This document shows positions 1-16,012 of a DNA stretch of 64,000 bases, piece after piece (position 1 is the stretch's first letter; the number at the start of each line of letters is the position of its first letter). Source of the stretch: Rudanella lutea DSM 19387 (GTDB taxonomy: Bacteria; Bacteroidota; Bacteroidia; Cytophagales; Spirosomataceae). The DNA lies in NCBI RefSeq assembly GCF_000383955.1, contig NZ_KB913013.1, forward strand, positions 4,855,694-4,919,693, read 5' to 3'. Both the position numbers and the translations under genes were made by a program. Below the pieces are notes generated by a model that saw nothing but the letters and a program-made list of their open reading frames with translations, had not been told where the DNA came from and did not search any database.

Positions 1-765
1 TGTCTGCTGGTGCAGGTCTTGTTGTGGGCCGAATTTGCGCTTGGCGCACCCCACTGGCAGTCGATTACACCCGTTGTGAATGGGCAAACGATAGCCTTGT
101 TTGGTCTGGCATTTTTAGTGCCGATAATCGGGTGGGTATTCTTGAAGAAGCCGCTACAGGACGCTACACAGGTCTTCCCGTTACGCCGGGAATTGCAGCG
201 TGCCAAATTTAATCCCGAATACGTCGAAAGCCTATTTACTAGACAACCGCAGATGCCTCCCATTTTTGAGGGTATGCGGGTGGTAACGATGGGCAACCCC
301 GAAGCCGAACATACGCTGACCGTTGTGACCAACCCGCTTTGTGGCCCCTGCCGACGGTTGCATCCCCAACTGGAAGCATTGGTAGAACGCACGGACACGA
401 TCAATTGTCAGTTTGTATTTATTGGATCAGCAGAATCAGTGGCTGTTACCCAAAAACTACTGAGTTTGTCTCCTGACGATGCCGAACGAGCCATGCACTT
501 GTGGTACACCCGGAATGACCATGATAGCATAGAGTGGCGTAAAGGAATAAGTCCTTCTGAGGAATTTGTCGATGCCAGGCAGCAACTACAACTGCACGCC
601 CGATGGAGCGAGTTGGCGCAGGTAGTGGGTACACCTACCCTTTACCTGAACGGACGGCAAATCCCGCTGACCTACACCCTCAACGATCTAGAAAACCTGT
701 GCCGCAATTTACGGGCGGCACCCCAACCAACGGAATTGGCCGATTCATATAAATCAATTGTTTAA
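1..765 (+). CDS. VKOR-thioredoxin fusion, C-terminal part (5' end outside window)
   Basis: The frame is open from base 1, so the gene begins upstream; the GTG at 10 is not a convincing start. What is visible is a membrane segment (about codons 30-50), a basic linker with the FNPEY signature, then a thioredoxin-fold domain with a CGPC redox motif at 340-351 and a cis-Pro region (VGTPTLYLNG) near 630-655. This layout matches the C-terminal half of vitamin K epoxide reductase proteins fused to thioredoxin, which oxidise exported cysteines to disulfides at the periplasmic face. It sits 20 bp before a cysteine-rich double-glycine peptide gene and in the same direction as a C39 exporter, so its likely job is to fold that peptide. 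The VKOR four-helix core itself is not in view, so the fusion is inferred from the linker and domain pattern. Confidence 0.82.
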   Translation, partial: CLLVQVLLWAEFALGAPHWQSITPVVNGQTIALFGLAFLVPIIGWVFLKKPLQDATQVFPLRRELQRAKFNPEYVESLFTRQPQMPPIFEGMRVVTMGNPEAEHTLTVVTNPLCGPCRRLHPQLEALVERTDTINCQFVFIGSAESVAVTQKLLSLSPDDAERAMHLWYTRNDHDSIEWRKGISPSEEFVDARQQLQLHARWSELAQVVGTPTLYLNGRQIPLTYTLNDLENLCRNLRAAPQPTELADSYKSIV

Positions 766-785
766 CTTTCAAACGAATCAAAACG

Positions 786-1037
786 ATGTTAGCAAGATTT
801 GCAGATGCCGCTCTGACAAGGTCAGAGATGAGGAATTTAAGAGGGGGGACATTTATGTGTTCAACGAGTGCAACGTACACTGTCACCCTGCATGGTGAGA
901 AGGTTGAACAACGTTTGTTTATACAAAATCAAGGCTGTGCATTATCGAGTACCGAGCTGTGTCAAGCAAAAACAACACAAATTTGTAAGTCCTGGGGGGT
1001 TAGCAGTTGTTACGCGGAATGTCATTGGCAATATTAA
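786..1037 (+). CDS. Double-glycine leader peptide precursor, Cys-rich core
   Basis: An 83-residue protein. Residues 8-21 (ALTRSEMRNLRGG region) match the double-glycine leaders of Bacteroidetes secreted peptides, which C39 peptidases cut after GG, here predicted between Gly21 and Thr22. The remaining 62-residue core has six cysteines (25, 51, 59, 67, 75, 79), enough for three disulfides, and ends in an aromatic tail HWQY. I recognise no family for the core. It lies between a VKOR-thioredoxin gene and a TlpA-thioredoxin gene, upstream of a C39 ABC exporter and HlyD, which is the context expected for its oxidation, cleavage and export. No radical-SAM or lanthionine enzyme is nearby, so disulfide folding rather than thioether formation is favoured. 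Function (bacteriocin, signal or other) cannot be read from sequence. A 73-residue frame overlapping it has no leader and is rejected. Confidence 0.75.
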   Translation: MLARFADAALTRSEMRNLRGGTFMCSTSATYTVTLHGEKVEQRLFIQNQGCALSSTELCQAKTTQICKSWGVSSCYAECHWQY

Positions 1038-1043
1038 TCAATT

Positions 1044-1070
1044 AAGAAATCCCACATTGTGGGATTTCTT
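1044..1070 (+). terminator. Hairpin after the peptide precursor gene
   Basis: A 27-nt near-perfect palindrome, arms AAGAAATCCCACA and TGTGGGATTTCTT around one base, starting 6 bp after the precursor stop. There is no long T tract, so it may be a processing or mRNA-stabilising hairpin or a leaky terminator that keeps precursor expression above that of the downstream export genes. Confidence 0.6.
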
Positions 1071-1108
1071 GGAAGTCTTATTACGGTAATCAAATCAATT
1101 CTTACACA

Positions 1109-2551
1109 ATGTGCATTATGAGAGCGACTCTACTTATAATAAGCATCTTTGTCGTTTTTCTTGGGCTCATCGACTACTGTGTGGCTCAATCGAATGGTGA
1201 TGTAGCTACCCTTGTAATTACTAATGAGTCTGGAGGTCCAATATCTATGCACTATAATGACTATTTTAATCATTTAAGAAGACAGCCTATTGTAAAAGAA
1301 AGAAGAACAGGTTTGCCCGACACTGTGAAAATAAATTTAGAAAAGCCTACAGAAGTCGTATTTACTACAAGTGACAATCGAGATTATCCAGTTTATGTAA
1401 TGCCAAACGATTTAATTAATGTGCATTACTCGTTTAACAAGATCCAAAAATTTACCTTCTCTGGAACGTATTTGCACGAACTGAATTTTTTGAGTTTTAT
1501 GTCAATAAAAGGGTATGGCATTAGCCAACCTGATCTGACGAATTTATTCTGGACTGAAAAGCTTGATGTTGCAGTTGTGATTGAAGAATATGAGCGATTA
1601 TATAACGAAAGGCTGAAAATTCTAAAAAATTACTCTGATTCGTTGAGCCTGAACAAAAAGTACCATGATGTTTATTTGTATCAAATAAAGCTAATGTATT
1701 TAATTGATATGATGCAGCCTTTTTATAGGGTAAGTGACAAAACAAGATTACCAGAAAACTATTTAAAAACGCTCGATTCTTTTAAAGAATGGATCAATAC
1801 TAGTGACGATATAATCTACAGCCAATGGTATCCTTTTGCGATTCGTAGTTACCATATGTATTTGAATCGTAGCATAGATGATCCTAATGATTTTTTTAGG
1901 AAGTCATATTTCTCTGCGCGAGAAATATATAATGAGAAAGTTGCTAATCTACTTCAATTCAATATATTACATGATAATAGAGAAAAACCTTGTAATTTTT
2001 ATGAAGAATGTTTGGCTGATTTTCGAACAAATTGTCTGATTGAGGCATATACGAAGCATCTTGAAAGCGAGTTTAAAAGCGTGAAACAAGCTAAAGATTC
2101 GTTAGTTCAGGCTAAAACATTCACTGACGAAGTACTCATTGGTATAGATGAAAAAAAAACGTCTTGGGGAGATGTACTTAAAAATGGACAAGGTAAAATT
2201 TTGTACATAGATATATGGGCAAGCTGGTGTGCACCTTGTAGGGGTGAAATGCCAAGTTCCATTAAATTACAGAACGAGTTATCGAAAGAGTTATACTCTT
2301 TTGTCTACATATCAATTGATACCGATAAACACAAATGGACTAAAGCTATTAAGGCTTTAAAATTAGACAATCCCTCCAGTAAGCATTTTTTACTTAACCC
2401 AAATTCTAATTTGGCTCGCTTTATAACGTCGAATAGTGTGCCAAAATATGTATTAATTGGAGATAAGAGTCAGGTGATAACTTTAGATGCCAATAGGCCA
2501 TCAGATCCAACACTCAAAGAAATTCTCAGTGATTTGACCAAAAATAAATAG
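1109..2551 (+). CDS. TlpA-like thioredoxin-fold protein, exported
   Basis: A 480-residue protein. An N-terminal hydrophobic stretch (residues about 6-26) ending in VAQ looks like a signal peptide; ATG at 1118 is an equally possible start. Residues 30-330 have no motif I recognise and resemble the variable N-terminal part of Bacteroidetes TlpA proteins. Residues 335-480 form a TlpA/AhpC-type thioredoxin domain with WCAPC at 373-377 (Cys374, Cys377) and a cis-Pro region (SVPKYVLIG). Such proteins reduce or isomerise disulfides in the periplasm. Beside a Cys-rich exported peptide and a VKOR fusion it probably corrects or resolves disulfides. Base composition is strikingly AT-rich (one line, 1681-1740, has 17 G/C in 60), unlike the exporter downstream, which suggests separate acquisition. 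Confidence 0.8.
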   Translation: MCIMRATLLIISIFVVFLGLIDYCVAQSNGDVATLVITNESGGPISMHYNDYFNHLRRQPIVKERRTGLPDTVKINLEKPTEVVFTTSDNRDYPVYVMPNDLINVHYSFNKIQKFTFSGTYLHELNFLSFMSIKGYGISQPDLTNLFWTEKLDVAVVIEEYERLYNERLKILKNYSDSLSLNKKYHDVYLYQIKLMYLIDMMQPFYRVSDKTRLPENYLKTLDSFKEWINTSDDIIYSQWYPFAIRSYHMYLNRSIDDPNDFFRKSYFSAREIYNEKVANLLQFNILHDNREKPCNFYEECLADFRTNCLIEAYTKHLESEFKSVKQAKDSLVQAKTFTDEVLIGIDEKKTSWGDVLKNGQGKILYIDIWASWCAPCRGEMPSSIKLQNELSKELYSFVYISIDTDKHKWTKAIKALKLDNPSSKHFLLNPNSNLARFITSNSVPKYVLIGDKSQVITLDANRPSDPTLKEILSDLTKNK

Positions 2552-2557
2552 TATAAC

Positions 2558-3637
2558 ATGTTAATCTCTGCAAAGTATAAATTGCTAACCATGAATAATA
2601 AGTGGGGAGTTAGATGGCGTGTATTTATTGGTAAATTGAGGTACTGTATGATGAAATTTTACACAATAATTTCAGTGCGTAATATTTCCAATGACAAAAT
2701 ATTTAATAATAATGAAATACGGCTCTTTGCTATTATGCGAAACGAGTCATTACGATTACCTCACTTTTTTGAATATTATAAGAGCCTGGGTGTAGATCGT
2801 TTTTTTCTGATTGATAATAGTTCAACTGACGATTCAGTACAAATTGCTTTACAATGCCAGGCAGTTCATGTTTTTCGAACTACCGATAGTTACGTAAATC
2901 ATTGGTACTGGATGGAGCATTTGCTGGAAAAATACGGTAAAGGGTACTGGTGCGTAGTGGTTGATATTGACGAGCTACTATATTTCCCTCAAGCTGAAAA
3001 ATTATCAATACCAAAATTTTGTCAGTTTCTTGAAGAAACAGGCAGTACAGCTTTTCGTGCTTTGCTGTTAGATATGTATGCTGATAAGCCAGTTAACAGT
3101 AGTAACTACACTCCAGGTCAAAACCCGTTGACAGTAGTTTCAAACTTTGACAAAGAATATGAGAAAATTCAGTTTTCATTCTTTGATCGCCTACGCTGGC
3201 AATTCTTTGAATCAATAATTTTTACGGGCGGCATGAGAGACCGTGTTTTCGGTAAAAGTACACCACCCTCCATCCTGTCAAAAATCCCCCTCTTCAAATA
3301 CCTACCTGATACATATTTAGTTCAGGGGATGCACGCTATTAATGGGGCGCAAATTAGTGATCTACAGGGAGTGGTGATTCATACAAAATTCATACACGAT
3401 TTTATTGAAGAGGTGCGAGAAGAGTGTGTTCGGGAGCAACACTATGGAAATGCGTTTTATTACAAGCATTTTAATCAACGTATTACGCAAAATCCATCAT
3501 TGAATTTATCTTTTTCGGGTTCAGTTCGCTTCCAGGATTCGGCTCAGTTAGTCGAGTTAGGTTTGATGAAGACGAGTGAGCAATTTGAAGAATTTGTCCG
3601 CACACAAACAGAAGCAGAAAACACGCCATCAACATGA
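2558..3637 (+). CDS. Glycosyltransferase family 2-like protein in peptide export operon
   Basis: A 359-residue protein with the GT-A signature of the Glyco_tranf_2_4/GT92-like group: FAIMRNE near residue 57 (nucleotide-sugar binding loop), a central IDNSSTDDS segment (85-93), and a DxD-type motif VVDIDE at 134-139 (Asp136, Asp138) that would bind the metal and sugar nucleotide. There is no clear membrane anchor, so it should act in the cytoplasm. It starts 6 bp after the TlpA gene and its stop overlaps the exporter start (ATGA), so it is co-translated with the exporter. Glycosylation of the secreted peptide before export is an attractive inference but unproven; it could instead modify a surface polymer. 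AT-rich like the preceding gene. ATG at 2591 is an alternative start. Confidence 0.8.
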   Translation: MLISAKYKLLTMNNKWGVRWRVFIGKLRYCMMKFYTIISVRNISNDKIFNNNEIRLFAIMRNESLRLPHFFEYYKSLGVDRFFLIDNSSTDDSVQIALQCQAVHVFRTTDSYVNHWYWMEHLLEKYGKGYWCVVVDIDELLYFPQAEKLSIPKFCQFLEETGSTAFRALLLDMYADKPVNSSNYTPGQNPLTVVSNFDKEYEKIQFSFFDRLRWQFFESIIFTGGMRDRVFGKSTPPSILSKIPLFKYLPDTYLVQGMHAINGAQISDLQGVVIHTKFIHDFIEEVREECVREQHYGNAFYYKHFNQRITQNPSLNLSFSGSVRFQDSAQLVELGLMKTSEQFEEFVRTQTEAENTPST

Positions 3638-6024
3638 AACCTTTTCCTCACTATACGCAACTCGATCAGATGGATTGTGGCCCTACCTGCCTGCGGATGG
3701 TGGCCAAACATTATGGTCGGTCGTACACGGTGCAGTCGTTGCGCGAAAAGGCGCAGATAGGTAAGGATGGCGTATCGCTGTTGGGCATTGCCGAGGCCGC
3801 CGAAGCCATTGGCTTCCGGTCGATGGGCGTGAAGCTCTCGTTTGAGAAACTGGCCCATGAAGTCCCTCTGCCCTGCATTGTGCATTGGCAGAAGAATCAT
3901 TTTGTGGTTGTCCATGCCATTAAAGGGACGGGCAAAAGCTGGTTAGGGGCCATCAAAGGAGGACGTAACGTACCCAAATCGGGGGCCGACATAGGTAACG
4001 TACAGCAGACACCGTTCGCGCCTTCGTTACAGATCGGCGCGGAGCAAATCATTATTCCACCCGTTCAACGGCCGCCTATGCCCACGCCCCCAACCCCGCC
4101 TGTTGCGCGTAAAGGAACCGTCTGTGTCGCTGACCCGGCAAAGGGACTGGTTACGTATTCGGCGGAGGAGTTCTGCCGGGGGTGGTTGTCGGCCCGCACT
4201 TTAGGGGACGATTCGCAGGGCCGCGAGGAAGGTGTAGTACTACTGCTGGAACCTACCCCTGCATTCTATGAACAGGAGGATGAGCCCACTTCGGGTTACG
4301 GTTTTGGGCGGGTGCTGGGTTACCTGTGGCAATACAAGCCCTTGCTGGCGCAATTGGTGCTGGCGTTGGCCGTCGGGAGCGGGCTGCAACTGCTGTTTCC
4401 GTTCCTGACCCAATCGGTGGTCGATATTGGGGTCAATACGCAGAACCTGCCGTTTGTGTATCTGGTGCTGGGGGCGCAACTGATGCTGATGGTCGGGCGG
4501 CTGTCGGTCGAGTTTATTCGGAGCTGGATTCTGCTACACATCAGCACAAGGGTAAACCTCAATATTCTCTCCGATTTTCTCATCAAACTCATGCGGTTGC
4601 CCGTGACCTTTTTCGACAGCAAGAATTTTGGCGACATCATGCAGCGCATCGGCGACCATCATCGGATTGAAGCCTTCTTAACCGGACAAACGCTAACGGT
4701 GCTGTTCTCGCTGGTCAACCTCGTTATTTTCGGGGTGGTGCTGGCTCTGTATAACCTCACCATTTTTGGTATTTTCATGGGAGCCAGTGCGTTGTATGTG
4801 GCCTGGGTGTTGTTGTTTCTGCGGCAACGACGGAAACTGGACTTTCGGCGGTTTGATGTGTCGGCCAAGAACCAGAGTAGTCTGGCCCAACTGATTCAGG
4901 GCATGCAGGAAATCAAGCTGGCCGGGGCCGAGCGGCCCATGCGCTGGGCGTGGGAGCGGTTGCAGGTGCGGTTGTTCCGGTTGCAGATGCGGGGATTGGC
5001 CCTGAGTCAAATTCAGACGGGCGGTGCATTTGCCATCAACGAAGGCAAGAACATCCTGATTACGTTTCTGGCTGCGCAGGCCGTCATCAGCGGGCAATTG
5101 ACCCTGGGAGCCATGCTGGCCGTGCAGTATATCATTGGGCAGATGAACAGTCCCGTTGAGCAACTTGTGGGGTTTACGCAGGGCTTACAGGATGCCAAAA
5201 TCAGTCTGGAACGGCTAAACGAAATTCATACCCTACCGGATGAGGAACCGGCTGACCGCCCACACATAGACTCGTTACCCGTTAACAAAGCCCTGCAACT
5301 ACGGCAGGTTTCGTTTACCTACGTCGGCGCGGGCAACGAACCCGTACTGCGCAACATCAATCTACTGATCCCAGAAGGACGTACTACGGCTATTGTGGGT
5401 ATGAGTGGCAGCGGCAAAACGACCTTGCTTAAACTGTTACTTAAATTTTACGAACCCGGCAAAGGTGAAATTCGCTTAGGCGAGGCTGCCTTGCGGAACG
5501 TAGGACACGCGATGTGGCGCACTCAATGCGGTGTTGTCATGCAGGATGGGTTTATTTTTTCCGACACGATTGCCCGCAACATCGCTGTGGGTGTCGACCG
5601 CATCGACGCCAGGCGGCTCGACCACGCCGTTCGGGTGGCCAATTTGCGCGAGTTCGTCGACTCGCTTCCGTCGGGTTACCACACCAAAATTGGGGTCGAA
5701 GGTAACGGCATCAGTCAGGGGCAACGACAACGGATTCTGATAGCCCGCGCCGTTTATAAAGACCCGCAGTATATCTTCTTTGACGAAGCAACTAACGCCC
5801 TGGATGCCAATAATGAAGCAATCATTATGAGGAACTTAGATGATTTTTTTGTTGGTCGCACAGTCGTGATTGTGGCCCACCGGCTAAGTACCGTTTGCCA
5901 TGCCGATCAGATTGTGGTACTCGACAAAGGCGAGATAACCGAAGTTGGCACCCATACCGAGTTAGTGGCCCGCCGGGGCGACTATTGGCAATTGGTTCGT
6001 AATCAGTTGGAATTAGGTACGTAA
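3634..6024 (+). CDS. C39-peptidase ABC exporter with proline-rich insert
   Basis: A 796-residue peptidase-containing ABC transporter that cleaves double-glycine leaders and exports the product. N-terminal C39 domain: QLDQMDCGPTC with catalytic Cys15, NHFVVV with His89, and the VADPAKG segment with Asp167. His and Asp are 78 residues apart, against roughly 15-20 in ordinary C39 domains, because of an insert at about 100-160 that ends in a proline-rich run. Next come an exporter-type membrane domain (about 228-520) and a nucleotide-binding domain: Walker A GMSGSGKTT at 589-597, signature ISQGQ at 693-697, Walker B with FFDE (Asp717, Glu718), and H-loop VAHRLS. GC-rich (4381-4440 has 33 G/C in 60), unlike the two genes before it. 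HlyD follows after 28 bp. The peptidase triad appears complete, so it is probably active. Confidence 0.92.
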   Translation: MKPFPHYTQLDQMDCGPTCLRMVAKHYGRSYTVQSLREKAQIGKDGVSLLGIAEAAEAIGFRSMGVKLSFEKLAHEVPLPCIVHWQKNHFVVVHAIKGTGKSWLGAIKGGRNVPKSGADIGNVQQTPFAPSLQIGAEQIIIPPVQRPPMPTPPTPPVARKGTVCVADPAKGLVTYSAEEFCRGWLSARTLGDDSQGREEGVVLLLEPTPAFYEQEDEPTSGYGFGRVLGYLWQYKPLLAQLVLALAVGSGLQLLFPFLTQSVVDIGVNTQNLPFVYLVLGAQLMLMVGRLSVEFIRSWILLHISTRVNLNILSDFLIKLMRLPVTFFDSKNFGDIMQRIGDHHRIEAFLTGQTLTVLFSLVNLVIFGVVLALYNLTIFGIFMGASALYVAWVLLFLRQRRKLDFRRFDVSAKNQSSLAQLIQGMQEIKLAGAERPMRWAWERLQVRLFRLQMRGLALSQIQTGGAFAINEGKNILITFLAAQAVISGQLTLGAMLAVQYIIGQMNSPVEQLVGFTQGLQDAKISLERLNEIHTLPDEEPADRPHIDSLPVNKALQLRQVSFTYVGAGNEPVLRNINLLIPEGRTTAIVGMSGSGKTTLLKLLLKFYEPGKGEIRLGEAALRNVGHAMWRTQCGVVMQDGFIFSDTIARNIAVGVDRIDARRLDHAVRVANLREFVDSLPSGYHTKIGVEGNGISQGQRQRILIARAVYKDPQYIFFDEATNALDANNEAIIMRNLDDFFVGRTVVIVAHRLSTVCHADQIVVLDKGEITEVGTHTELVARRGDYWQLVRNQLELGT

Positions 6025-6052
6025 AACGGTTCAACGCCGACCCGATACGTCT

Positions 6053-7348
6053 ATGTCGCATACCACCCATACGTTCATTGAACTTCGTTCAGAGGAGGTG
6101 CAGGAAGTGCTCTCCCGTCCGCCAAAATGGATACTCCGCTGGGGTGTTTCGGTCGTGTTTGCCGTTCTGGTGCTGGTATTTTTGGGGGCGTGGGTTATTC
6201 GATACCCAGACCTGATTAAGGCATCGTTTCGGCTTACATCGGCCAACGCCCCCAAAGCGGTACTGACCCGCACCGAAGGCAAACTCACCCGCCTACTGGT
6301 GCAGGAAGGGCAGGTGGTAAAAGCCGGTACGGTGCTGGCTTACTTAGAAAGCACGGCCCGGCACGATGAGGTGTTGAAACTTTCGGACGAATTAGCCAAA
6401 GCCTGGACGGTGGTTGGCAGGGGGAATCTGGAAAACCTGAGCCAACTTAGCCTGTCCGACTATCATCAGTTAGGCGAGTTACAAACCGCCTATCAGACGT
6501 TTGAGCAGAGCCGAATCCAACTGCGGGCGTACCTGGCTAATGGCTTTTATAGCAAGAAACGGGCATTGCTGCAACAGGAAATCATAGACTTACAGGCATT
6601 GGCCGACAACCTGCGCGAACAACACCAAATTCAGGCGCAGGACATCCAACTGGCACAGGAAGACTACGACGTCCAACAGCGGTTATACCAGGAAAAGGTC
6701 ATTGCCCGGCTGGACCTGAAGCGCGAGGAAAGTAAGAACATTGCCCGCCGATTACCCTATCAGCAAACGGCATCGGCCTTGATCACAAACCTGACCGCCC
6801 AACGAGCCAAACAGAAAGAGATTCTGGAATTAGACAAACAGGTATCTGAGGAACGCGACAAGTTTTTACAAGCGCTCAACACCCTACGCAGCGCGGCCGA
6901 TGCCTGGATCATGAACTATGTGCTGACGGCCCCCGTAGCCGGGCGGGTATCTTTTCCCACCACCTTGCAGGAGAATCAGGCCATGACCACAGGGCAGGAG
7001 TTACTGTACGTGGCCCCACCGGGTAGCGATTACGTGGGCGAACTGCGCGTACCGCAGCAGAACGCCGGTAAAGTACAGGTTGGGCAGGCCGTACTGGTCA
7101 AATTTGCTGGATTTCCCTACCAGGAGTTCGGTGCCGTACGCGGACGCATTACGGCCATTGCCGATGTGCCGGTCAAAGACAGCGTTTTTCTGGCTAAAGT
7201 CACGTTGCCCAATGGTCTGAAAACGACCTATGGTCAATCGCTGACGGTAAAAACGGGTATGGCTGCGTCTGCCGACATCATCACCGATGATAGTCGGTTG
7301 CTCGAAAAACTGTTTTATCAGCTTCGTAAAGTAGCCGGAGGGCGGTAG
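6053..7348 (+). CDS. HlyD-family secretion adaptor
   Basis: A 431-residue membrane fusion protein. It has a short cytoplasmic N-terminus, one membrane helix (about residues 28-48), a split biotinyl-lipoyl domain (TRTEGKLTRLLVQEGQVVKAG near 81-101, and TAPVAGRV near 290) flanking a long coiled-coil hairpin (about 110-270), and a C-terminal beta-barrel segment. It would bridge the C39 ABC exporter to an outer-membrane channel, so the peptide leaves the cell in one step. It lies 28 bp downstream of the exporter and ends the + strand operon; the next gene is convergent, 29 bp away, with no obvious terminator between them. No TolC-like gene is in the window, so the outer-membrane partner must be encoded elsewhere. 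Confidence 0.92.
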   Translation: MSHTTHTFIELRSEEVQEVLSRPPKWILRWGVSVVFAVLVLVFLGAWVIRYPDLIKASFRLTSANAPKAVLTRTEGKLTRLLVQEGQVVKAGTVLAYLESTARHDEVLKLSDELAKAWTVVGRGNLENLSQLSLSDYHQLGELQTAYQTFEQSRIQLRAYLANGFYSKKRALLQQEIIDLQALADNLREQHQIQAQDIQLAQEDYDVQQRLYQEKVIARLDLKREESKNIARRLPYQQTASALITNLTAQRAKQKEILELDKQVSEERDKFLQALNTLRSAADAWIMNYVLTAPVAGRVSFPTTLQENQAMTTGQELLYVAPPGSDYVGELRVPQQNAGKVQVGQAVLVKFAGFPYQEFGAVRGRITAIADVPVKDSVFLAKVTLPNGLKTTYGQSLTVKTGMAASADIITDDSRLLEKLFYQLRKVAGGR

Positions 7349-8775: not shown

Positions 8776-9731
8776 GCGGGTTGTGGCATCAATACGGGTT
8801 CGATGGACAGATCGGCCTCCAGCTGGGCCAGGTCGCGGAGCATGGCATCGACGCGGGTGCAGAGGTCGGGCGTGAGCCGGTCTACTTTCCGGCGTGTGTA
8901 CAGGCTGATGGGGAGTCCGCGTTTCTGTAGGCTGTACTTCGCCAGGGTGGGGTAGGCCGTATGCACTAAGTCCATGGTTCTGTTCAGAAACTGCTGCACC
9001 CGTTTTACGGCTTTCTGCTGCGCAGGGTCGTTGTAATGGTTGCAGAGCCAGACAATCAGTTCGGGGTAAATATTGCCCTGAATGCACGACAGCCCGGCGG
9101 CCCCGGCCTTGAGCGACGATACTGCGTTGACCATGTAGGCATCGTATAGCCCAAACGGGTAGCCCTGTGCCACCGTCAACCGCCGATTTACTTCGGCCAG
9201 GTCGAGGCAGGTGTCTTTGTGGTAGATCAGCCGCCCGGTAGGCAGAATGTCGGCCAGAATGTCGGGGGTGATGAGTCGTTTGTACGGCACCGGGCATTCG
9301 TACATGCCGAGCGGTACGCCCTCGGTTTGGTCGATGAGTTGATGCAACCGGTCCAGAAACACCGCGTCGGACTCTTCGGGTGAGGCCAATTGGCTCGTAA
9401 TCACAATCACGGCCTGTACGCCGGTATCGTAAATGCGTTTTACAAAATCGGCCTGTACGGCAATGGGGCCGCCAAACGTGCCGGTCGATACAACGGGCAC
9501 CCGGCCATTGGTCCTATTAACCACCTGCCGGGTGATGGTGATGCGCTCAAAGCCTGTCAGCTCGTACATCTCGCTCGAAAGGCAGTTGGCAAAGAGGCCG
9601 GCCGCCCCGGTTTGCAGGTAAAAATCGGTGAGCGTAGCCAGACCCGGCAGGTCGACCGCACCCGTATCGGTAAACGGGGTCAGCATGACCGGCACAAAGC
9701 CGCGCGGTAACGAAGAAGGAGGAGTGGGCAT
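8772..9731 (-). CDS. Dihydrodipicolinate synthase / N-acetylneuraminate lyase family protein
   Basis: A 319-residue class I aldolase. The start chosen is ATG at 9729-9731 (MPTPPSSLPRG); a longer frame would add residues encoded only by the intergenic AATGAAC tandem repeat. Family landmarks: PVMLTPF near residue 14, the GAAGLFANCLSSEMYEL substrate loop in place of the usual G-T-T-G-E, a conserved Tyr in MYECPVPYKR, and the Schiff-base Lys in IYHKDT. True DapA is unlikely because the loop differs and the context is catabolic. Next to a sodium:solute symporter, a lyase acting on a 2-keto acid sugar such as a sialic acid or a keto-deoxy acid is plausible. Its stop overlaps the next gene (ATGA), indicating translational coupling. 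Confidence 0.8.
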   Translation of the reverse strand: MPTPPSSLPRGFVPVMLTPFTDTGAVDLPGLATLTDFYLQTGAAGLFANCLSSEMYELTGFERITITRQVVNRTNGRVPVVSTGTFGGPIAVQADFVKRIYDTGVQAVIVITSQLASPEESDAVFLDRLHQLIDQTEGVPLGMYECPVPYKRLITPDILADILPTGRLIYHKDTCLDLAEVNRRLTVAQGYPFGLYDAYMVNAVSSLKAGAAGLSCIQGNIYPELIVWLCNHYNDPAQQKAVKRVQQFLNRTMDLVHTAYPTLAKYSLQKRGLPISLYTRRKVDRLTPDLCTRVDAMLRDLAQLEADLSIEPVLMPQPA

Positions 9732-9758
9732 AGGTATAGGGGGGAATGGAGAATGGAC

Positions 9759-9793
9759 AATGAACAATGAACAGTGAACAACGAACAATGAAC
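9759..9793. repeat. AATGAAC-type tandem repeat
   Basis: Five or six degenerate copies of a 7-mer close to AATGAAC in the 194-bp gap between the symporter stop and the lyase start. The same unit forms the hairpin arms at 23339-23392. No complementary arm was found here, so this looks like half of such an element. Confidence 0.7.
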
Positions 9794-9880
9794 TGGATAC
9801 TGGCTTGATGGGAGCAACGCAATCCTGAGTATCAGTGCGAATATTGGCTACCGGTATGTATGCCACCGGAAGGCCGGCCA

Positions 9881-9925
9881 CCAAAAACGATAAACCAAAA
9901 ACTAAAAACGATAAACCCCAAACCC
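9881..9925. repeat. AAAAACGATAAACC direct repeats
   Basis: Two 14-nt copies (9883-9896 and 9904-9917) separated by related A-rich sequence, next to a GC-rich GGCCGGCC block at 9872-9879. The complement of this unit resembles the GGTTTTTAG tandem at 33338-33387 and the outer flanks of the element at 54350-54570. Confidence 0.65.
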
Positions 9926-11518
9926 CTACGCCGAAGCGGTTGTCTGGGGTTCAGCGGTTTGGGCTTGGGTGCCGCGGCCGCGCAGGCGAGTCAGCAGCAG
10001 GCCCGTCAGAAACAACGTAAGCGTACCCACCACCATAATCATGTTAGGGTGTAGCGGGCTGCGTAATTGCGCCATCGAGTCGGGGAGTTGGGCCGAAAGC
10101 GTCATCCAGACAATCACCAGCACGCCCACGATGGTAGCAATCAGAGCCTCGGCGTTGCGGGTCGTGCGGGAGATGATACCCAGCAGGAAGAGCCCCAGCA
10201 TACCCCCCGCAAAAATGCCCGAGAGCATCCACCAGATGTCGAGTACGCTTTTCACGCCAATCATGGCAATGCCCGTAAACATGCCCAGCACCCCAAACAC
10301 GGTGGTGGCAATGTACAGTACCCGCAACGATTGCTTATCCGTCAGCGCGCCCGACACGTACCGCTGATAAATGTCGACCGAGAAGACCGTAGCCGACGCA
10401 TTCATGCCTGAGCTGATGGTGCTCATGGCCGCCGACATAATGGCCGCCACAATGAGGCCCACCATTCCTGCCGGAACCTTGTTCACCATAAAATGCGGCA
10501 TGACCTTATCGCCCACGTCGGCCACACTGAGCGAAGCCGCCAACTGCCGAATGGCGTCCGGGTTGGCACCGGGCAAACGCTCGGTAGCCACCTGCATCCT
10601 GACGGCATTCAGCAGGTCGGGGTTAGCCTGATAGTAGGCGTACAGACTCGATCCGAGAAAAAAGAACAGCAGCGAGATAGGCACGTACAGGTACACGCAC
10701 AGCCAAACCGATTGGCTCGCTTCGCGCACCGAAGCCGTGGTGTGGTACCGCTGCACGTAGTTCTGATCCATCCCGAAGTTGTTCAGGTTCATAAAAAAGC
10801 CGTAGAGCAATACCACCCAGAACGTGGCCTGTGTAAAGTCGGGCGCGAAACTGCCTAAGCTAAACTTGTTGTCGGCCTGCCCAACCTCCACAATCTTCGA
10901 CAGCCCGCCGGGCATACCATCCACTACCAACCACAAAATCAGCACGGCCCCGCCGGTTTTGATGACACCCTGCGCTACTTCGGTCCAGATCACGGCCTCC
11001 ATACCGCCCAGCACGGTGTAAAAAATGATGCAGCTCCCCACCACCAGCATGATGGTAGCCATAGGGTAGCCGGTGAGGGCTTGCAGACTGAGTGCGATAC
11101 CGAAAAAGATGGATCCCATACGCGCCAGCTGCGTGAGCAGAAAACACACCACGGCGTAGGTGCGGGCCCAGGCCCCAAACCGATGTTCGAGGTGGGTGTA
11201 GGCCGATACCTCGCCCGTGCTGCGGTAAAACGGAATAAAAAACCGCGTGGCTACCCAGGCCGCCAGCGGCATGGAAAGGCTAAACACAAACGAATTCCAG
11301 TTGGAGCCGAAGGCTTTGCCCGGCACCCCCAGAAAGGTGTTGCTGCTCAGAAACGTAGCGTAGATCGACAGGCCGATGGCCCAACCCGGAATTTTGCCCG
11401 AAGCGGTCGTGAACTGATCGGCGTTCTGGTTTTTGCGGGAAAAGTAAATACCCACAGCCACCATCCCGACCAGGTAGGCCGCTATAATGCTCAGGTCTAT
11501 GATGGGGAGTGTCTTCAT
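9926..11518 (-). CDS. Sodium:solute symporter (SSS family)
   Basis: A 530-residue, strongly hydrophobic inner-membrane protein with about 13-14 predicted helices. Typical SSS features are the N-terminal FSRKNQNADQFTTASGKIPGW region, the SNTFLGVPG segment, GGMEAVIWTEVAQ (the family signature around helix 5), and a later SAAMSTISSGMNASATVFSVDIY stretch corresponding to the sodium-binding helix 8 region. It would import a sugar or sugar acid with sodium. Its start overlaps the stop of the PqaA-like gene (ATGA), and a lyase-family gene follows after 194 bp of repeats. Family members near such lyases often carry sialic acid or related acids, but the substrate cannot be read from sequence. Confidence 0.88.
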   Translation of the reverse strand: MKTLPIIDLSIIAAYLVGMVAVGIYFSRKNQNADQFTTASGKIPGWAIGLSIYATFLSSNTFLGVPGKAFGSNWNSFVFSLSMPLAAWVATRFFIPFYRSTGEVSAYTHLEHRFGAWARTYAVVCFLLTQLARMGSIFFGIALSLQALTGYPMATIMLVVGSCIIFYTVLGGMEAVIWTEVAQGVIKTGGAVLILWLVVDGMPGGLSKIVEVGQADNKFSLGSFAPDFTQATFWVVLLYGFFMNLNNFGMDQNYVQRYHTTASVREASQSVWLCVYLYVPISLLFFFLGSSLYAYYQANPDLLNAVRMQVATERLPGANPDAIRQLAASLSVADVGDKVMPHFMVNKVPAGMVGLIVAAIMSAAMSTISSGMNASATVFSVDIYQRYVSGALTDKQSLRVLYIATTVFGVLGMFTGIAMIGVKSVLDIWWMLSGIFAGGMLGLFLLGIISRTTRNAEALIATIVGVLVIVWMTLSAQLPDSMAQLRSPLHPNMIMVVGTLTLFLTGLLLTRLRGRGTQAQTAEPQTTASA

Positions 11519-12882
11519 TTCAGGAATACCTCGTCATTATCGGTCAGAAACATGCGGGTGCTTTCGGTGTAGGTGCCACCATTTGGTGCTTTGTACTTCA
11601 GGTCGACGTAAAAGGCACGATAGCCACTGCCCGGAAACGCTTCGGTCAGGTTTATTTTGGCCTGATTGGCGATCCCCAGCGATTTGCCGGTCCATTTTTC
11701 GTCCTGAAAAATCCGGTCGGCCGAGGTGGCCGACCAGACGGTCACGTCCTGAAGTGCATCGGGTGTGGCGGTCAGGGTCAGGTTTACGCCGGTTTTGGTG
11801 GGCGTTACCGTCCATTGGCAGGCGGGGTACGGCTTTTTGCTCAGGGTAGTCCCGAAAAAGGCGCTCAGGGCACCAAGGGCCTGCCGCTTATCGCCGAGGT
11901 CGTGGCCTACGTTGGGGACATAGTGGATAAAGTTCTGCCCCGGAATCTCGCCGAGGTAGTGCTTCACCGCGTCTACGGTCCAGTACTCATCGTTGGTGCC
12001 CATAAACAGCATTTTGGGCATGGTGAGTTTTTTTCGATAGGCGTAGGGGTCAATCATTTCGGTAACGGCACTGCCGGCCTTACTGTGTACCGTCTGCGGA
12101 ATTTCGAGTTTTACGTAATCTTCAATCTGCTCGCTGTACTTGTTCCAGCTTTTCATCTGGTAGTCGAGGTTCACGGGCATGTTCAGAATATCAATGACCA
12201 TTGGGGCAATGGCTACTACGCGCTTGTCGCTGGCACCGGTGAGCCAGGTGGTCCAGCCGCGTTTCGAGGCTCCCGACACCACAAACCCGTTGATGGGTTT
12301 CTGGAGCGTTTTGGTCGAAAACTCCTGCATGGCGTCCATAGCCCGCACGGCACTTTTTACCATCGGGAACAGCAGTGGCCAGCTGTAGTCGCCATCTTTT
12401 TTGAACTGATGGAGGGTGTACGAGATGAGCGCGTCTTCGGTCAGGTTGTCGTACAACGGTTGGTTGGGGGTTTGGCGCAGCACGGCCACAACGGCCTTGT
12501 TGCCCGTAGCGACCGCACTCATAGCCCGGTTGAATCCGTCTTCGCGGCCATTCCAGCGGGGCTCACCTTCTTTGATGGAGCCGCCCGTAATGAAAAGCAT
12601 GGCCTCCGTATGCTGCACGTCTTTAGGCACCAGAATCGTGAGCTGATGTTTCCAGATGTGGTTACGCCAGTTCTGGGAGGTCAGCAGGATTTCGTAGGCC
12701 GTAATATCGCCATAGGTGTAGCTGTCTTTCTGCTGCCACGCAAAGGTTTGGTCCCCATTGCGGAGGTAGCTTTCGAGGGCTGTCGATGGCGTAATTTTGG
12801 GTTTGGGGGCTGGCCGCTCGAACGCAAAAAGCGCTACCAGCAGGCAACCCAGAATAGACAGGCGTAAGGGGTTCAGGTTCAT
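11515..12882 (-). CDS. PhoPQ-activated pathogenicity-related (PqaA-like) protein
   Basis: A 455-residue exported protein. The N-terminus (LRLSILGCLLVALFAF) is a signal or anchor. The body is a recognisable PhoPQ_related domain: TPSTALESYL, LTILVPKDVQHTEAMLFITGG, the nucleophile-elbow-like VSGASKRGWTTWL, IVIDILNMP-type segment, and a late VPNVGHDL that could supply a histidine. The fold resembles alpha/beta hydrolases, with a C-terminal Ig-like part (VNLTLTATPDA). The family is named from Salmonella and Dictyostelium members, but its enzymatic reaction is not established. It lies 20 bp after the ceramidase-family gene and overlaps the symporter start, so it belongs to the same catabolic operon. 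Confidence 0.85.
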   Translation of the reverse strand: MNLNPLRLSILGCLLVALFAFERPAPKPKITPSTALESYLRNGDQTFAWQQKDSYTYGDITAYEILLTSQNWRNHIWKHQLTILVPKDVQHTEAMLFITGGSIKEGEPRWNGREDGFNRAMSAVATGNKAVVAVLRQTPNQPLYDNLTEDALISYTLHQFKKDGDYSWPLLFPMVKSAVRAMDAMQEFSTKTLQKPINGFVVSGASKRGWTTWLTGASDKRVVAIAPMVIDILNMPVNLDYQMKSWNKYSEQIEDYVKLEIPQTVHSKAGSAVTEMIDPYAYRKKLTMPKMLFMGTNDEYWTVDAVKHYLGEIPGQNFIHYVPNVGHDLGDKRQALGALSAFFGTTLSKKPYPACQWTVTPTKTGVNLTLTATPDALQDVTVWSATSADRIFQDEKWTGKSLGIANQAKINLTEAFPGSGYRAFYVDLKYKAPNGGTYTESTRMFLTDNDEVFLK

Positions 12883-12902
12883 GGTTCAGATTGGTGATAG
12901 GC

Positions 12903-14171
12903 TTACCGGTACGCATCGGCGGCCGGGGCATTGGCAATCAGTTTGAGGGCTTCGTCCATAAAAATCTCGGCGGTGTTTTCGCCTAAGCTCGTGCGACTGA
13001 TGTAGTCATAACGCCGGAAGCTCCTGAAATCTACTTTTGTGAGCATATAGCCGAAGGCATCGTTGGTGAGCCCAAACAGCATAGGGGCCGTAGCGCGCAT
13101 TTGCCGCTTGAGGTAGAAGCCAATATTGGGCAGGGCTTCGCCCGGAATGGTGAGCACCTGCGCCGTGCCAATCGTGAGCAGATTCACCTGCGCGGCCACC
13201 TTGTCGCCGGGCAAAACCGGGTACTTCAGGGGTGAGTTTTTGACAATGTACTTCATCACGTCCGACTCAATCGGAAACGTAACCGACCGGGTGGCACAGG
13301 TGAGCGACGGGTTCGGTTGCGCCGGGGCCGACCCGATAATCCGCAGGGCTTCGTCGGCCAGAAGTTCGCCAATCCGGATGCATTCTTCCCAGGTGTTGGC
13401 TTCTTTGCCCTCGGGCCGCCGGTTGTCGGCCGTGACCATGCCGCCCTGCGCTCCGTTGACAAACAGGGCCACACCCCCAACGTTAGCCTCGATCCGGTCG
13501 TACAGCGGGCCGCAGAGGTCGGGACTCAGAATACCCCGGCCCGATCCAATCACTTCGGGGTGAATGGCGTAGTTCACAAGCGTTGCAATGGGTTTACCCA
13601 CGTCGGGGCCGGTACTGGCTAGGGCCTGAATCACCCCGCAGCGCGGATCGTAGAGGTCGGGGGCATAGTAGTTGTAGGCAATCTGCCCTTTGGCTTCGCC
13701 CACGGCCACGCGCAGGGTTGCCGGGCGGAGGTTGGTGCGGGCTTCGTTGACGGCCTCGGCCATGGCACGCACACACCGGTCCAGGTACGGCATGTCGGCA
13801 AATGACTGGCCTTTTTCGTTTGGAAACGCGTAGGCATCGGGGCCACTGTGGGTGTGGGTAGCCGCAATGAGAATGTTTTCGGGTGGAATGCCCCCAATCA
13901 GCGATCGCGCCCGATTGCCCAGTACCGAGGGCCAGCCCAGGTTATCAATGCTCACTACGGCAACGCGGGTGCCGTTTTTTTCAAACACCACGGCCCGCAC
14001 CCACAGGTCGCCCTGTTTGCGGGTGGCCGGTTGGGGGGTACCAATACCGCCCGAAACGGGTAGCAGTGGGTCTGGGGTGATAAGCCGACGGGCGGCCCCG
14101 GCCTTGAAATCCTGCGCTTCGGTGTTAAGGCTCAGCAGGCAGGCAATGAAATAGACAATCCACGTTCGCAT
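12903..14171 (-). CDS. Neutral/alkaline ceramidase N-terminal-domain protein
   Basis: A 422-residue protein with a signal peptide (ending near TEAQ). It carries the N-terminal domain of neutral/alkaline ceramidases: RRLITPDP, the zinc-site motif AATHTHSGPDAY, a second histidine in VNYAIHPEVIG, and FVNGAQGGM. Neutral ceramidases hydrolyse the amide of ceramide using zinc; full-length enzymes have about 650-700 residues and a C-terminal Ig-like domain that is missing here. Many Bacteroidetes proteins share only this domain and their substrates are not known. Context (SusC/SusD, symporter, lyase family) suggests a glycolipid or an amide-bearing sugar. It begins 146 bp after SusD, past a probable partial terminator. 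Confidence 0.82.
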   Translation of the reverse strand: MRTWIVYFIACLLSLNTEAQDFKAGAARRLITPDPLLPVSGGIGTPQPATRKQGDLWVRAVVFEKNGTRVAVVSIDNLGWPSVLGNRARSLIGGIPPENILIAATHTHSGPDAYAFPNEKGQSFADMPYLDRCVRAMAEAVNEARTNLRPATLRVAVGEAKGQIAYNYYAPDLYDPRCGVIQALASTGPDVGKPIATLVNYAIHPEVIGSGRGILSPDLCGPLYDRIEANVGGVALFVNGAQGGMVTADNRRPEGKEANTWEECIRIGELLADEALRIIGSAPAQPNPSLTCATRSVTFPIESDVMKYIVKNSPLKYPVLPGDKVAAQVNLLTIGTAQVLTIPGEALPNIGFYLKRQMRATAPMLFGLTNDAFGYMLTKVDFRSFRRYDYISRTSLGENTAEIFMDEALKLIANAPAADAYR

Positions 14172-14218
14172 ACGGATGAGAATGGATAATGACCTACAAA
14201 AAGCAACGAGGTCTTATC

Positions 14219-14270
14219 GGACAAAAAAGAACTCAAAGCCGCCCTTGGGTACGATAAGGTCGACTTTGAG
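14219..14270 (-). terminator. Partial intrinsic terminator after SusD
   Basis: Read on the - strand, CTCAAAG (14264-14270) pairs with CTTTGAG (14232-14238), with an inner CCTT/AAGG pair, followed by TTCTTTTTTG. It lies 48 bp after the SusD stop and 48 bp before the ceramidase gene, so it probably lowers expression of the downstream enzymes relative to SusC/SusD. Confidence 0.6.
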
Positions 14271-14273
14271 ATC

Positions 14274-14298
14274 CCCCCTCCTGAGTTTAAGGAGGGGG
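14274..14298. repeat. CCCCCTCCT...AGGAGGGGG hairpin element
   Basis: A perfect 9-bp inverted repeat (14274-14282, 14290-14298) with a 7-nt loop. The sequence, with the flanking GGGTGG tail, is related to the elements at 29608-29745, so it is one of a dispersed C/G-run repeat family. Confidence 0.65.
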
Positions 14299-14317
14299 TA
14301 AGAGGGTGGCGATTTAC

Positions 14318-15961: not shown

Positions 15962-16012
15962 GAGGTACGTGATTTTGGGTTGGTCGTTGTACACTGTACA
16001 GCGTACATTCAT

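What the first reader, a model, noticed from the sequence alone, without database searches (positions are those of the whole stretch)
1..7348. Cassette for an oxidatively folded, possibly glycosylated secreted peptide
In one direction and with tight spacing lie a VKOR-thioredoxin fusion (disulfide former), a double-glycine peptide with six core cysteines, a TlpA thioredoxin (reductase/isomerase), a glycosyltransferase, a C39 ABC exporter and HlyD. Established knowledge: C39 exporters cut GG leaders, VKOR and TlpA proteins handle periplasmic disulfides. Inference: the product is cut, exported and disulfide-folded, and may carry a sugar. The combination with a co-translated glycosyltransferase is not one I can match to a described class such as bacteroidetocins or lanthipeptides.
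Basis: partly seen in the sequence, partly recalled or inferred. Interest (0 to 1): 0.78.

Follow-up and report, generated by a model that had tools for sequence, protein, structure and literature searches.

The report
Glycocin-like secreted disulfide peptide cluster
A bacterium of the Runella group carries a gene set that very probably makes a small, cysteine-bridged, sugar-decorated secreted peptide, built like the glycosylated bacteriocins of Gram-positive bacteria but with different parts, including a dead protease domain that may steer the peptide to its disulfide-forming enzyme.

Summary
It begins left of the window with an XRE regulator, a UGT-like glycosyltransferase (GT1) and the rest of the VKOR gene. 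Order: GT1, C39-like/VKOR/Trx fusion, six-cysteine GG peptide, hairpin, TlpA, GT2, C39 exporter, HlyD. In 200 genomes of the family the GT2 subfamily occurs 8 times, each time in a locus with GT1, VKOR and GG peptide. Foldseek's top six hits for the GT2 model are SunS/ThuS chains. It is not filed as a glycocin: no odd cysteine and no CX6C pair; O-linkage is likelier.
New here: (1) glycosyltransferases of at least four Pfam families occupy the place before the exporter; (2) a strong hairpin follows 48 of 64 GG genes tested against 3 of 93 other genes; (3) the VKOR's C39 domain lacks its catalytic motif in 55 of 55, and the peptide leader covaries with this domain and GT1, but hardly with the exporter's protease domain. 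Glycosylation itself is inferred, not shown.

The parts
1..765 (+). 3' part of the C39-like/VKOR/thioredoxin fusion (whole gene L002:11119-12765, 548 aa); N-terminal C39-like domain without catalytic Cys motif, VKOR with C211, C219, C292xxC295, Trx C408xxC411
   Evidence: PF07884 56.4 bits, PF03412 35.7 bits, PF13462 25.6 bits; Cys conservation; no CG[PA] motif in the first 135 residues of 55 of 55
786..1037 (+). precursor peptide, 83 aa: leader 786-848 (21 aa, ends LTRSEMRNLRGG), core 849-1034 (62 aa, 6 Cys)
   Evidence: TIGR04149 19.4 bits, below its cut-off of 25; six Cys kept in two relatives
1043..1071 (+). RNA hairpin directly after the precursor gene, 13 bp; no uninterrupted T run, though the terminator scan lists it
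   Evidence: (z -3.79); same feature after 48 of 64 GG genes tested
1109..2551 (+). TlpA-type thioredoxin with SWCAPC motif; N-terminal signal-like segment (by eye)
   Evidence: PF13905 42 bits; motif
2558..3637 (+). glycosyltransferase of the PF13704 (Glyco_tranf_2_4) family, DID motif, SunS/ThuS-like GT-A fold
   Evidence: PF13704 74.5 bits; AF2 model; Foldseek top 6 = SunS/ThuS; VIA Z 12.1 and 11.2, behind GalS1 13.2
3634..6024 (+). C39 peptidase-containing ABC exporter (PCAT)
   Evidence: PF03412 105.9, PF00005 95.5, PF00664 93.4 bits; catalytic CGP motif
6053..7348 (+). HlyD-family periplasmic adaptor
   Evidence: PF13437 60.4 bits; TIGR01843 127.9 bits, below cut-off

Best explanation
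A glycocin-like RiPP cluster of Spirosomataceae-type bacteria. The XRE protein regulates it (inferred). The GG precursor is made in excess over its enzymes because a hairpin after its gene stabilises or attenuates the message (hairpin shown, effect inferred). In the cytoplasm the 21-residue leader is bound by GT1 and by the protease-dead C39-like domain of the VKOR fusion (inferred from fold and covariation). GT2 and GT1 put one or more sugars on the core, most likely O-linked to Ser/Thr (inferred). The C39 exporter cuts after GG and passes the core through the inner membrane with HlyD (from established knowledge of these families). On the periplasmic side the VKOR-Trx relay oxidises the six Cys to three disulfides, with TlpA reducing or shuffling wrong pairs (inferred). 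The product is probably a bacteriocin against related bacteria (least certain step).
For: Gene content and order. GT2 subfamily: 8 places in 200 family genomes at E up to 1e-12, all 8 in VKOR loci with GT1 and a GG peptide; a C39 exporter is in the operon in 6 of 8, directly after GT2 in the seventh (L086) and 7.4 kb further on in the eighth (L084). GT2 model: ranks 1-6 of PDB are SunS/ThuS, E 5.8e-7 to 2.4e-6; profile vs SunS hhalign E 3.2e-5, prob 72.8; SunS itself scores 27.1 bits with PF13704, cut-off 27.5. The sublancin locus has the same kinds of parts and an annotated stem-loop right after its precursor. Cys counts: 4 in 25, 6 in 32, 8 in 9 of 73 cores, odd in 3 (63 of 70 distinct cores have 4, 6 or 8). 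Hairpins: 48 of 64 GG genes beat all 40 shuffles against 3 of 93 other operon genes. C39 motif absent in 55 of 55 VKOR fusions, present in 37 of 37 exporters by the same pattern; the domain's model matches PCAT1 and the LahT-leader complex, Z 15.8. Leader covaries with that domain (Mantel 0.39, 0 of 500; 0.30 after control for the VKOR membrane part, 0 of 300) and with GT1 (0.485, 0 of 500), little with the exporter's C39 (0.08, 44 of 500; -0.05 after control). GT1 and other GTs co-occur: both 17, GT1 only 20, other only 3, neither 28, Fisher p 0.0012; in the 50 with exporter 14/13/3/20, p 0.0064.
Against: No glycosylation, cleavage or activity was seen here or found in the papers read. Fold does not fix the acceptor: the best VIA match is the plant protein GalS1 (a galactan synthase, recalled; Z 13.2), and Foldseek TM-scores to SunS are low (0.30-0.34). 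The GT2 sequence finds no PDB relative by sequence. None of the eight cluster proteins matched an immunity family in the scans; the neighbourhood was not scanned for one. 20 of 50 VKOR clusters with exporter have no recognised GT (17 if two DUF families are counted), so sugars are not part of every such peptide. The leader also covaries weakly with the rest of the exporter (0.174, 1 of 500), and in the 24 GT1 loci the dead domain's signal falls to 0.05 after control for GT1. The hairpin is missing after L043, L054, one of two tested L059 peptides and L044. The loci are not independent by descent, so p values are optimistic.
Confidence: 0.7

Rival explanations
1. A bacteroidetocin-like disulfide bacteriocin without sugar; the glycosyltransferases serve another acceptor (envelope glycan or small molecule) and merely share the operon.
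For: Bacteroidetocin regions have a 5-TM protein, GG peptide, thiol oxidoreductase and C39 exporter; 'glycosyl' does not occur in the main text of PMC6671954. 20 of 50 related VKOR clusters with exporter lack a recognised GT.
Against: GT2 subfamily found only in these loci (8 of 8); GT1 covaries with the peptide leader after control for the VKOR C39-like domain (0.37, 0 of 300); GTs of different Pfam families stand at the same place.
Confidence: 0.17
2. GT1 is a self-protection enzyme: like the OleI type macrolide GTs it caps the peptide inside the cell and the sugar is removed outside (mechanism of OleI recalled).
For: GT1 matches the MGT family (76 bits, below cut-off 260) and OleI (34.6 bits, below cut-off 700); no immunity family among the eight cluster proteins.
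Against: None of the eight cluster proteins is a glycosidase by these scans; GT1 is missing from 23 of 50 clusters with exporter.
Confidence: 0.1
3. The product is a signal or a structural surface peptide, not a bacteriocin; the machinery works as in the best explanation.
For: Cores are hypervariable and no immunity family was seen among the cluster proteins; C39 exporters also move pheromones and structural peptides (general knowledge).
Against: Core divergence at a shared chromosomal site (20-37% identity between cores) is more usual for conflict molecules (inference).
Confidence: 0.2

Closest known systems
Glycocin clusters (sublancin of SPbeta, glycocin F, enterocin F4-9, thermoglycocin)
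   Same: Leader-bearing Cys-rich precursor, GT2-type enzyme (SunS/ThuS best Foldseek hits), thioredoxin-like and, in sublancin, DsbB-like oxidoreductases, C39 exporter; stem-loop after the precursor in sublancin
   Different: VKOR-Trx fusion with a dead C39 domain instead of BdbB/BdbA; additional GT1; HlyD; six Cys (even) without CX6C pairs; Bacteroidota. PMC9576775 (glycocin section read) says ten glycocins had been identified by experiment in Bacillota by 2022; it cites Singh and Rao 2021 on glycocin clusters beyond Firmicutes, which is not held, so clusters predicted in other phyla are already in print.
Bacteroidetocins (PMC6671954)
   Same: GG leader, Cys-rich core, thiol oxidoreductase, C39 exporter, Bacteroidetes; gene order TM protein - peptide - thiol oxidoreductase - exporter resembles VKOR - peptide - TlpA - exporter
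   Different: Core 42 aa with 4 Cys; 'glycosyl' absent from the main text; whether their 5-TM protein is a VKOR was not tested
TIGR04149 GG peptides of radical-SAM systems (and the GT of such systems, TIGR04157, recalled)
   Same: Leader type (19.4 bits here, 27.0 bits for L041, cut-off 25)
   Different: No radical SAM enzyme among the eight cluster proteins
RiPP recognition elements (general class, recalled)
   Same: Would be the functional counterpart of the dead C39-like domain
   Different: C39 fold fused to an oxidase, not a PqqD-like fold (recalled)

Membership tests
glycocin | glycosyltransferase of GT-A/GT2 type encoded with the precursor | tested here: met
glycocin | sugar on Ser, Thr or Cys of the core | not testable with these tools
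   needs mass spectrometry
glycocin | C39 exporter/protease in the cluster | tested here: met
glycocin | thiol-disulfide oxidoreductases in the cluster | tested here: met
   VKOR-Trx and TlpA; family differs from BdbB, which is PF02600
glycocin | two CX6C pairs giving nested disulfides (recalled) | tested here: not met
   core Cys at 4, 30, 38, 46, 54, 58, i.e. X25, X7, X7, X7, X3 spacing (counted from the core printed)
glycocin, S-linked type | odd number of Cys, one carrying the sugar (as in sublancin, recalled) | tested here: not met
   10 of 10 GG cores of the 8 GT2 loci have 4 or 6 Cys
bacteroidetocin | 42-aa core with 4 Cys after a 15-16 aa leader, region without GT | tested here: not met
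   62-aa core, 6 Cys, 21-aa leader, two GTs against PMC6671954
TIGR04149 rSAM-modified RiPP | score over cut-off and a radical SAM partner | tested here: not met
   19.4 of 25 bits; no radical SAM among the eight cluster proteins scanned

The most novel reading that the evidence does not exclude
The VKOR fusion is a leader-guided disulfide-forming RiPP enzyme: a dead C39 protease domain serves as the leader receptor. Around it lies a modular glycopeptide platform in which a recurrent GT1 works with a GT place before the exporter that is refilled from different Pfam families (PF13704, several PF00535 types, PF04488, PLOD-type PF25342, GT25-like) while the core is exchanged, so strains vary both peptide and glycan.
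Probability: 0.4. Interest if true: 0.78.

Novelty: new variant of a known kind. Interest (0 to 1): 0.62.

Why it matters
It would bring glycocin-type chemistry, known by experiment from Bacillota as of 2022 (PMC9576775), to Bacteroidota with a different oxidation system and two glycosyltransferases, and would offer GT families (including a PLOD-type GT) as candidate RiPP-modifying enzymes. The dead C39 domain makes a testable claim about how oxidative folding is aimed at one peptide in bacteria.

Tried and rejected
Considered and rejected: lanthipeptide (no Lan enzyme among the eight cluster proteins); radical-SAM RiPP (TIGR04149 below cut-off, no rSAM); plain tight operon without signals (the hairpin breaks it). 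Sequence search of GT2 against PDB gave nothing relevant. Sigma-70 and terminator scans of the region were not clearly richer than shuffles (15 vs 15.7 and 15 vs 11.2, sd 4.2), so no promoter is claimed. Core identity did not covary with VKOR or exporter C39, so only the leader is used in the argument. A first hairpin test used mononucleotide shuffles and no control genes and was repeated with dinucleotide shuffles and control genes. The [KR]Yx[LI]xTW N-terminal motif of slot GTs was found after looking and is not counted as evidence. VIA did not single out SunS: GalS1 ranks first. Literature: among the rows shown by searches (PMC open-licence library only, lists capped) I saw no paper on this cluster type; subscription papers are mostly missing.
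Full report
What is there. The window is G000:C1:4855694-4919693 of an unnamed 6.5-Mb genome. The cassette at the left end of the window continues to the left. In L002 (window position = L002 position minus 12000) the order is: XRE regulator 9146-9553, GT1 9675-11138, C39-like/VKOR/Trx fusion 11119-12765, precursor 12786-13037, TlpA 13109-14551, GT2 14558-15637, C39 ABC exporter 15634-18024, HlyD 18053-19348. GT1 is a UGT/MGT-type enzyme (PF00201 44.5 bits; MGT 76 bits, below cut-off). GT2 is PF13704 (74.5 bits).

The small gene is real. It has a relative of 42% identity directly after a VKOR gene in another genus (L044), and a third, 26% identical, in L043; all six Cys align in the three. Between own and L044 the differences at codon positions 1, 2, 3 are 36, 28, 49; dN is 0.54 and dS could not be computed. 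A profile of the three finds 23 of 200 family genomes at E up to 0.001: three strong places (119-141 bits, the three used to build it) and 26 weak ones (45 bits or less), 14 of these 26 ending before profile position 55. The leader is shared, the core much less.

Survey. The VKOR protein was sought in 200 genomes of the family: 81 have a match at E up to 0.001, many of them weak and confined to the C39-like part in ORFs of exporter size. I fetched stretches around the stronger places and annotated them by BLAST with the window proteins and slot proteins. Of 68 VKOR loci tabulated, 50 have a C39 exporter in the same operon walk; a GG peptide is in 54 of 68 and 41 of 50; GT1 in 37 of 68 and 27 of 50; another recognised GT in 17 of 50; any recognised GT in 30 of 50, or 33 of 50 if DUF6625 and DUF6734 are counted. 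Left out of these counts: L087 (found through GT2), L088 (no VKOR on its contig) and L090, whose VKOR-like ORF scored best to another query. Peptide cores: 73 counted; Cys 0 in 2, 1 in 1, 2 in 2, 3 in 2, 4 in 25, 6 in 32, 8 in 9. Three are duplicates; of 70 distinct cores 63 have 4, 6 or 8 Cys and 3 an odd number. GG peptides were picked by a pattern, so a few may be chance ORFs.

Glycosyltransferase place before the exporter. Between the GG peptide (with TlpA where there is one) and the exporter stand, in different loci: PF13704 (8 loci, see below); PF00535 of the u7 type (L046 at 22.3 bits, just under the cut-off, with L072 and L074 by similarity; in L047, 46.1 bits, it lies after HlyD); a pair of other PF00535 enzymes (L075; L045 by similarity); PF04488 (L051, L053, L101; the L051 contig ends there); PLOD-type PF25342 (L052; L053 by similarity); LicD (L079, between an exporter fragment and the exporter, outside the operon walk and not counted); a PF00535 enzyme beside a 445-aa protein (L097); GT25-like (L112, 24.2 bits, cut-off 24, between VKOR and exporter; the L101 relative, 19.8 bits, lies before VKOR). 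The 445-aa protein of L097 had no Pfam hit and is called GT25-like only by BLAST similarity to L112. Of the 17 counted clusters, 16 have the extra GT before the exporter; in L092 it lies after VKOR, with the exporter upstream. As a yardstick, the own genome has 43 matches to PF00535 in all. The PF13704 subfamily: 8 of 200 family genomes at E up to 1e-12, all 8 places inside VKOR loci that also have GT1 and a GG peptide; 1 of 395 phylum genomes at E up to 1e-60, the own one. TlpA is in 7 of these 8 loci; L041 has a WG-repeat protein in its place. The exporter follows GT2 in 7 of 8; in the Emticicia locus (L055/L084) it lies 7.4 kb on, with another GG peptide and a VKOR fragment between. Named genomes: Runella (3), Telluribacter, Emticicia, a strain called Cellulophaga, a Dyadobacter MAG and a Flavobacterium MAG; the last lies on a 4.2-kb contig without VKOR and its candidate peptides end the leader in GS, not GG.

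Exchange at one site. Six loci of genus g31 (three of them Runella by contig match) share the upstream flank gene u0. L043 and L050 there are 95% identical in GT1, 98% in the exporter, 97% in HlyD and 86% in GT2, but 40% in VKOR, 28% in TlpA and 26% in the core: an inner block has been exchanged. L043 and L075 are 82% identical in VKOR and 85% in the leader, but 24% in the core, and the GT before the exporter differs. Leader and VKOR mostly go together, with exceptions (leader 61-65% with VKOR 41-42% in L042-L050 and L050-L075); the core varies freely.

Hairpin. With dinucleotide shuffles, 48 of 64 GG genes have a downstream hairpin stronger than all 40 shuffles; other genes of the same operons: GT1 1 of 16, VKOR 1 of 28, GT2 0 of 4, ABC 1 of 17, TlpA 0 of 20, second TlpA type 0 of 8. 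Only gaps of 35 nt or more were tested, and the set includes L087 and duplicate loci. Among the GT2 loci plus L044, hairpins are missing after L043, L044, L054 and one of two tested L059 peptides. Sublancin's record also annotates a stem-loop right after its precursor. Simplest reading: differential expression of precursor over enzymes.

Dead C39 domain. The N-terminal part of the VKOR fusion (residues 13-128) scores PF03412 35.7 bits. The CG[PA] motif is absent from the first 135 residues in 55 of 55 full-length fusions and present in the first 60 in 37 of 37 exporters; the redox Cys (211, 219, 292, 295, 408, 411) are kept in 95-100%. The model of the domain of L085 (pLDDT 87.9) matches PCAT1 and the LahT protease-leader complex, Z 15.8, rmsd 2.3-2.5 A over 121-122 residues. 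Across the 44 loci with a full-length VKOR and a usable GG peptide, leader identity covaries with this domain (0.39, 0 of 500 permutations), and still so after control for the VKOR membrane part (0.30, 0 of 300) or the Trx part (0.33, 0 of 300); the reverse controls leave 0.07 (38 of 300) and 0.04 (80 of 300). With 31 non-redundant loci the values are 0.35 and 0.25. The exporter's own C39 domain gives 0.08 (31 loci, 44 of 500); the rest of the exporter gives 0.17 (1 of 500). GT1 gives 0.485 in 24 loci and 0.37 after control for the dead domain; the dead domain's signal then falls to 0.05 in those 24 loci, so the two cannot be told apart there. Some fusions have start codons called too far upstream, which blurs the domain border. 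I read this as leader recognition by both, more surely by GT1 where it exists.

GT2 as a peptide glycosyltransferase. AF2 model pLDDT 84.3, pTM 0.85. Foldseek against PDB ranks six SunS/ThuS chains first (E 5.8e-7 to 2.4e-6, TM 0.30-0.34), before TarP at 2.8e-5. VIA gives GalS1 Z 13.2, ThuS 12.1, SunS 11.2, others 10.5 and below; differences under 1 are ties. Profile against SunS: E 3.2e-5, probability 72.8, over 96 columns through the DID motif. This shows kinship of the catalytic domain, not the acceptor.

What it most likely is. It works like a glycocin cluster, but I do not file it as a glycocin, because the CX6C pairs and the odd Cys of the S-linked type (both recalled) are absent. Even Cys numbers in the 10 cores of GT2 loci point to full disulfide pairing and O-linked sugar, as reported for enterocin F4-9 on Ser37 and Thr46 (start of the abstract of PMC8620827 in the listing). 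The bacteroidetocin backbone (TM protein, peptide, thiol oxidoreductase, exporter; PMC6671954, section 8 and passages) is the other near relative.

Limits. No experiment. Annotation rests on BLAST to chosen representatives plus Pfam scans of 20 slot or operon proteins, so GTs of other families may have been missed and counts of 'no GT' are upper bounds. Loci are related by descent. Papers: PMC12457901 introduction and passages, PMC6671954 section 8 and passages, PMC10352776 section 13 and passages, PMC9576775 passages and the glycocin section; others seen only in listings. PMC10352776 reports GTs in some Bacteroidales RiPP clusters (BGC3, BGC9) and S-glycosyltransferase (GlyS) calls by BAGEL4, so sugar enzymes beside RiPP genes in this phylum are not new in themselves.

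Noticed in passing
N-termini of slot GTs: L047:799-1662, L048, L050, L054, L055, L059, L075:7053-7916: A short N-terminal motif like [LI][KR]Yx[LI]xTW occurs in slot GTs of different Pfam families (7 of 794 ORFs of 200 aa or more, all 7 slot GTs). Found after the fact; could be a docking helix.
   Followed up: partly
L087:14838-16860 and 10001-11077, 16921-17982: Dyadobacter MAG: an ATP-grasp (RimK-like) and a SPASM protein, as in grasp-with-spasm systems (name recalled), stand with two copies of the GT2, GT1 and VKOR.
   Followed up: partly
L095:8264-9154: The VKOR/GT1 pair also sits beside a lantibiotic dehydratase C-terminal domain protein (PF14028 113.5 bits), so it may serve other RiPP classes.
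   Followed up: no
L079:2449-3639: A LicD family protein (PF04991) and a protein that looks like a cytidylyltransferase (by eye) lie between an exporter fragment and the exporter; possible phosphocholine-type decoration.
   Followed up: no
L065, L075, L098, L106: VKOR is in two ORFs in these loci; L042 keeps no cluster gene after the GG peptide, whose core reads only two residues.
   Followed up: no
L052:12740-13549, L053:5828-6637: Bacterial PLOD-type glycosyltransferase domain (PF25342, 102.5 bits for L052) in a RiPP-like operon; eukaryotic relatives glycosylate collagen hydroxylysine (recalled).
   Followed up: partly
cores in L047, L048, L050-L053, L055, L059, L077, L078, L099: A recurring C-terminal core motif [YW]CCxxC, in several followed by xxSW, links otherwise unlike cores.
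   Followed up: no
L057, L069, L102, L108, L109, L111 (DUF6734); L104, L113 (DUF6625): Two Pfam families of unknown function stand in or beside these clusters where GTs stand elsewhere; they may be glycosyltransferases.
   Followed up: no
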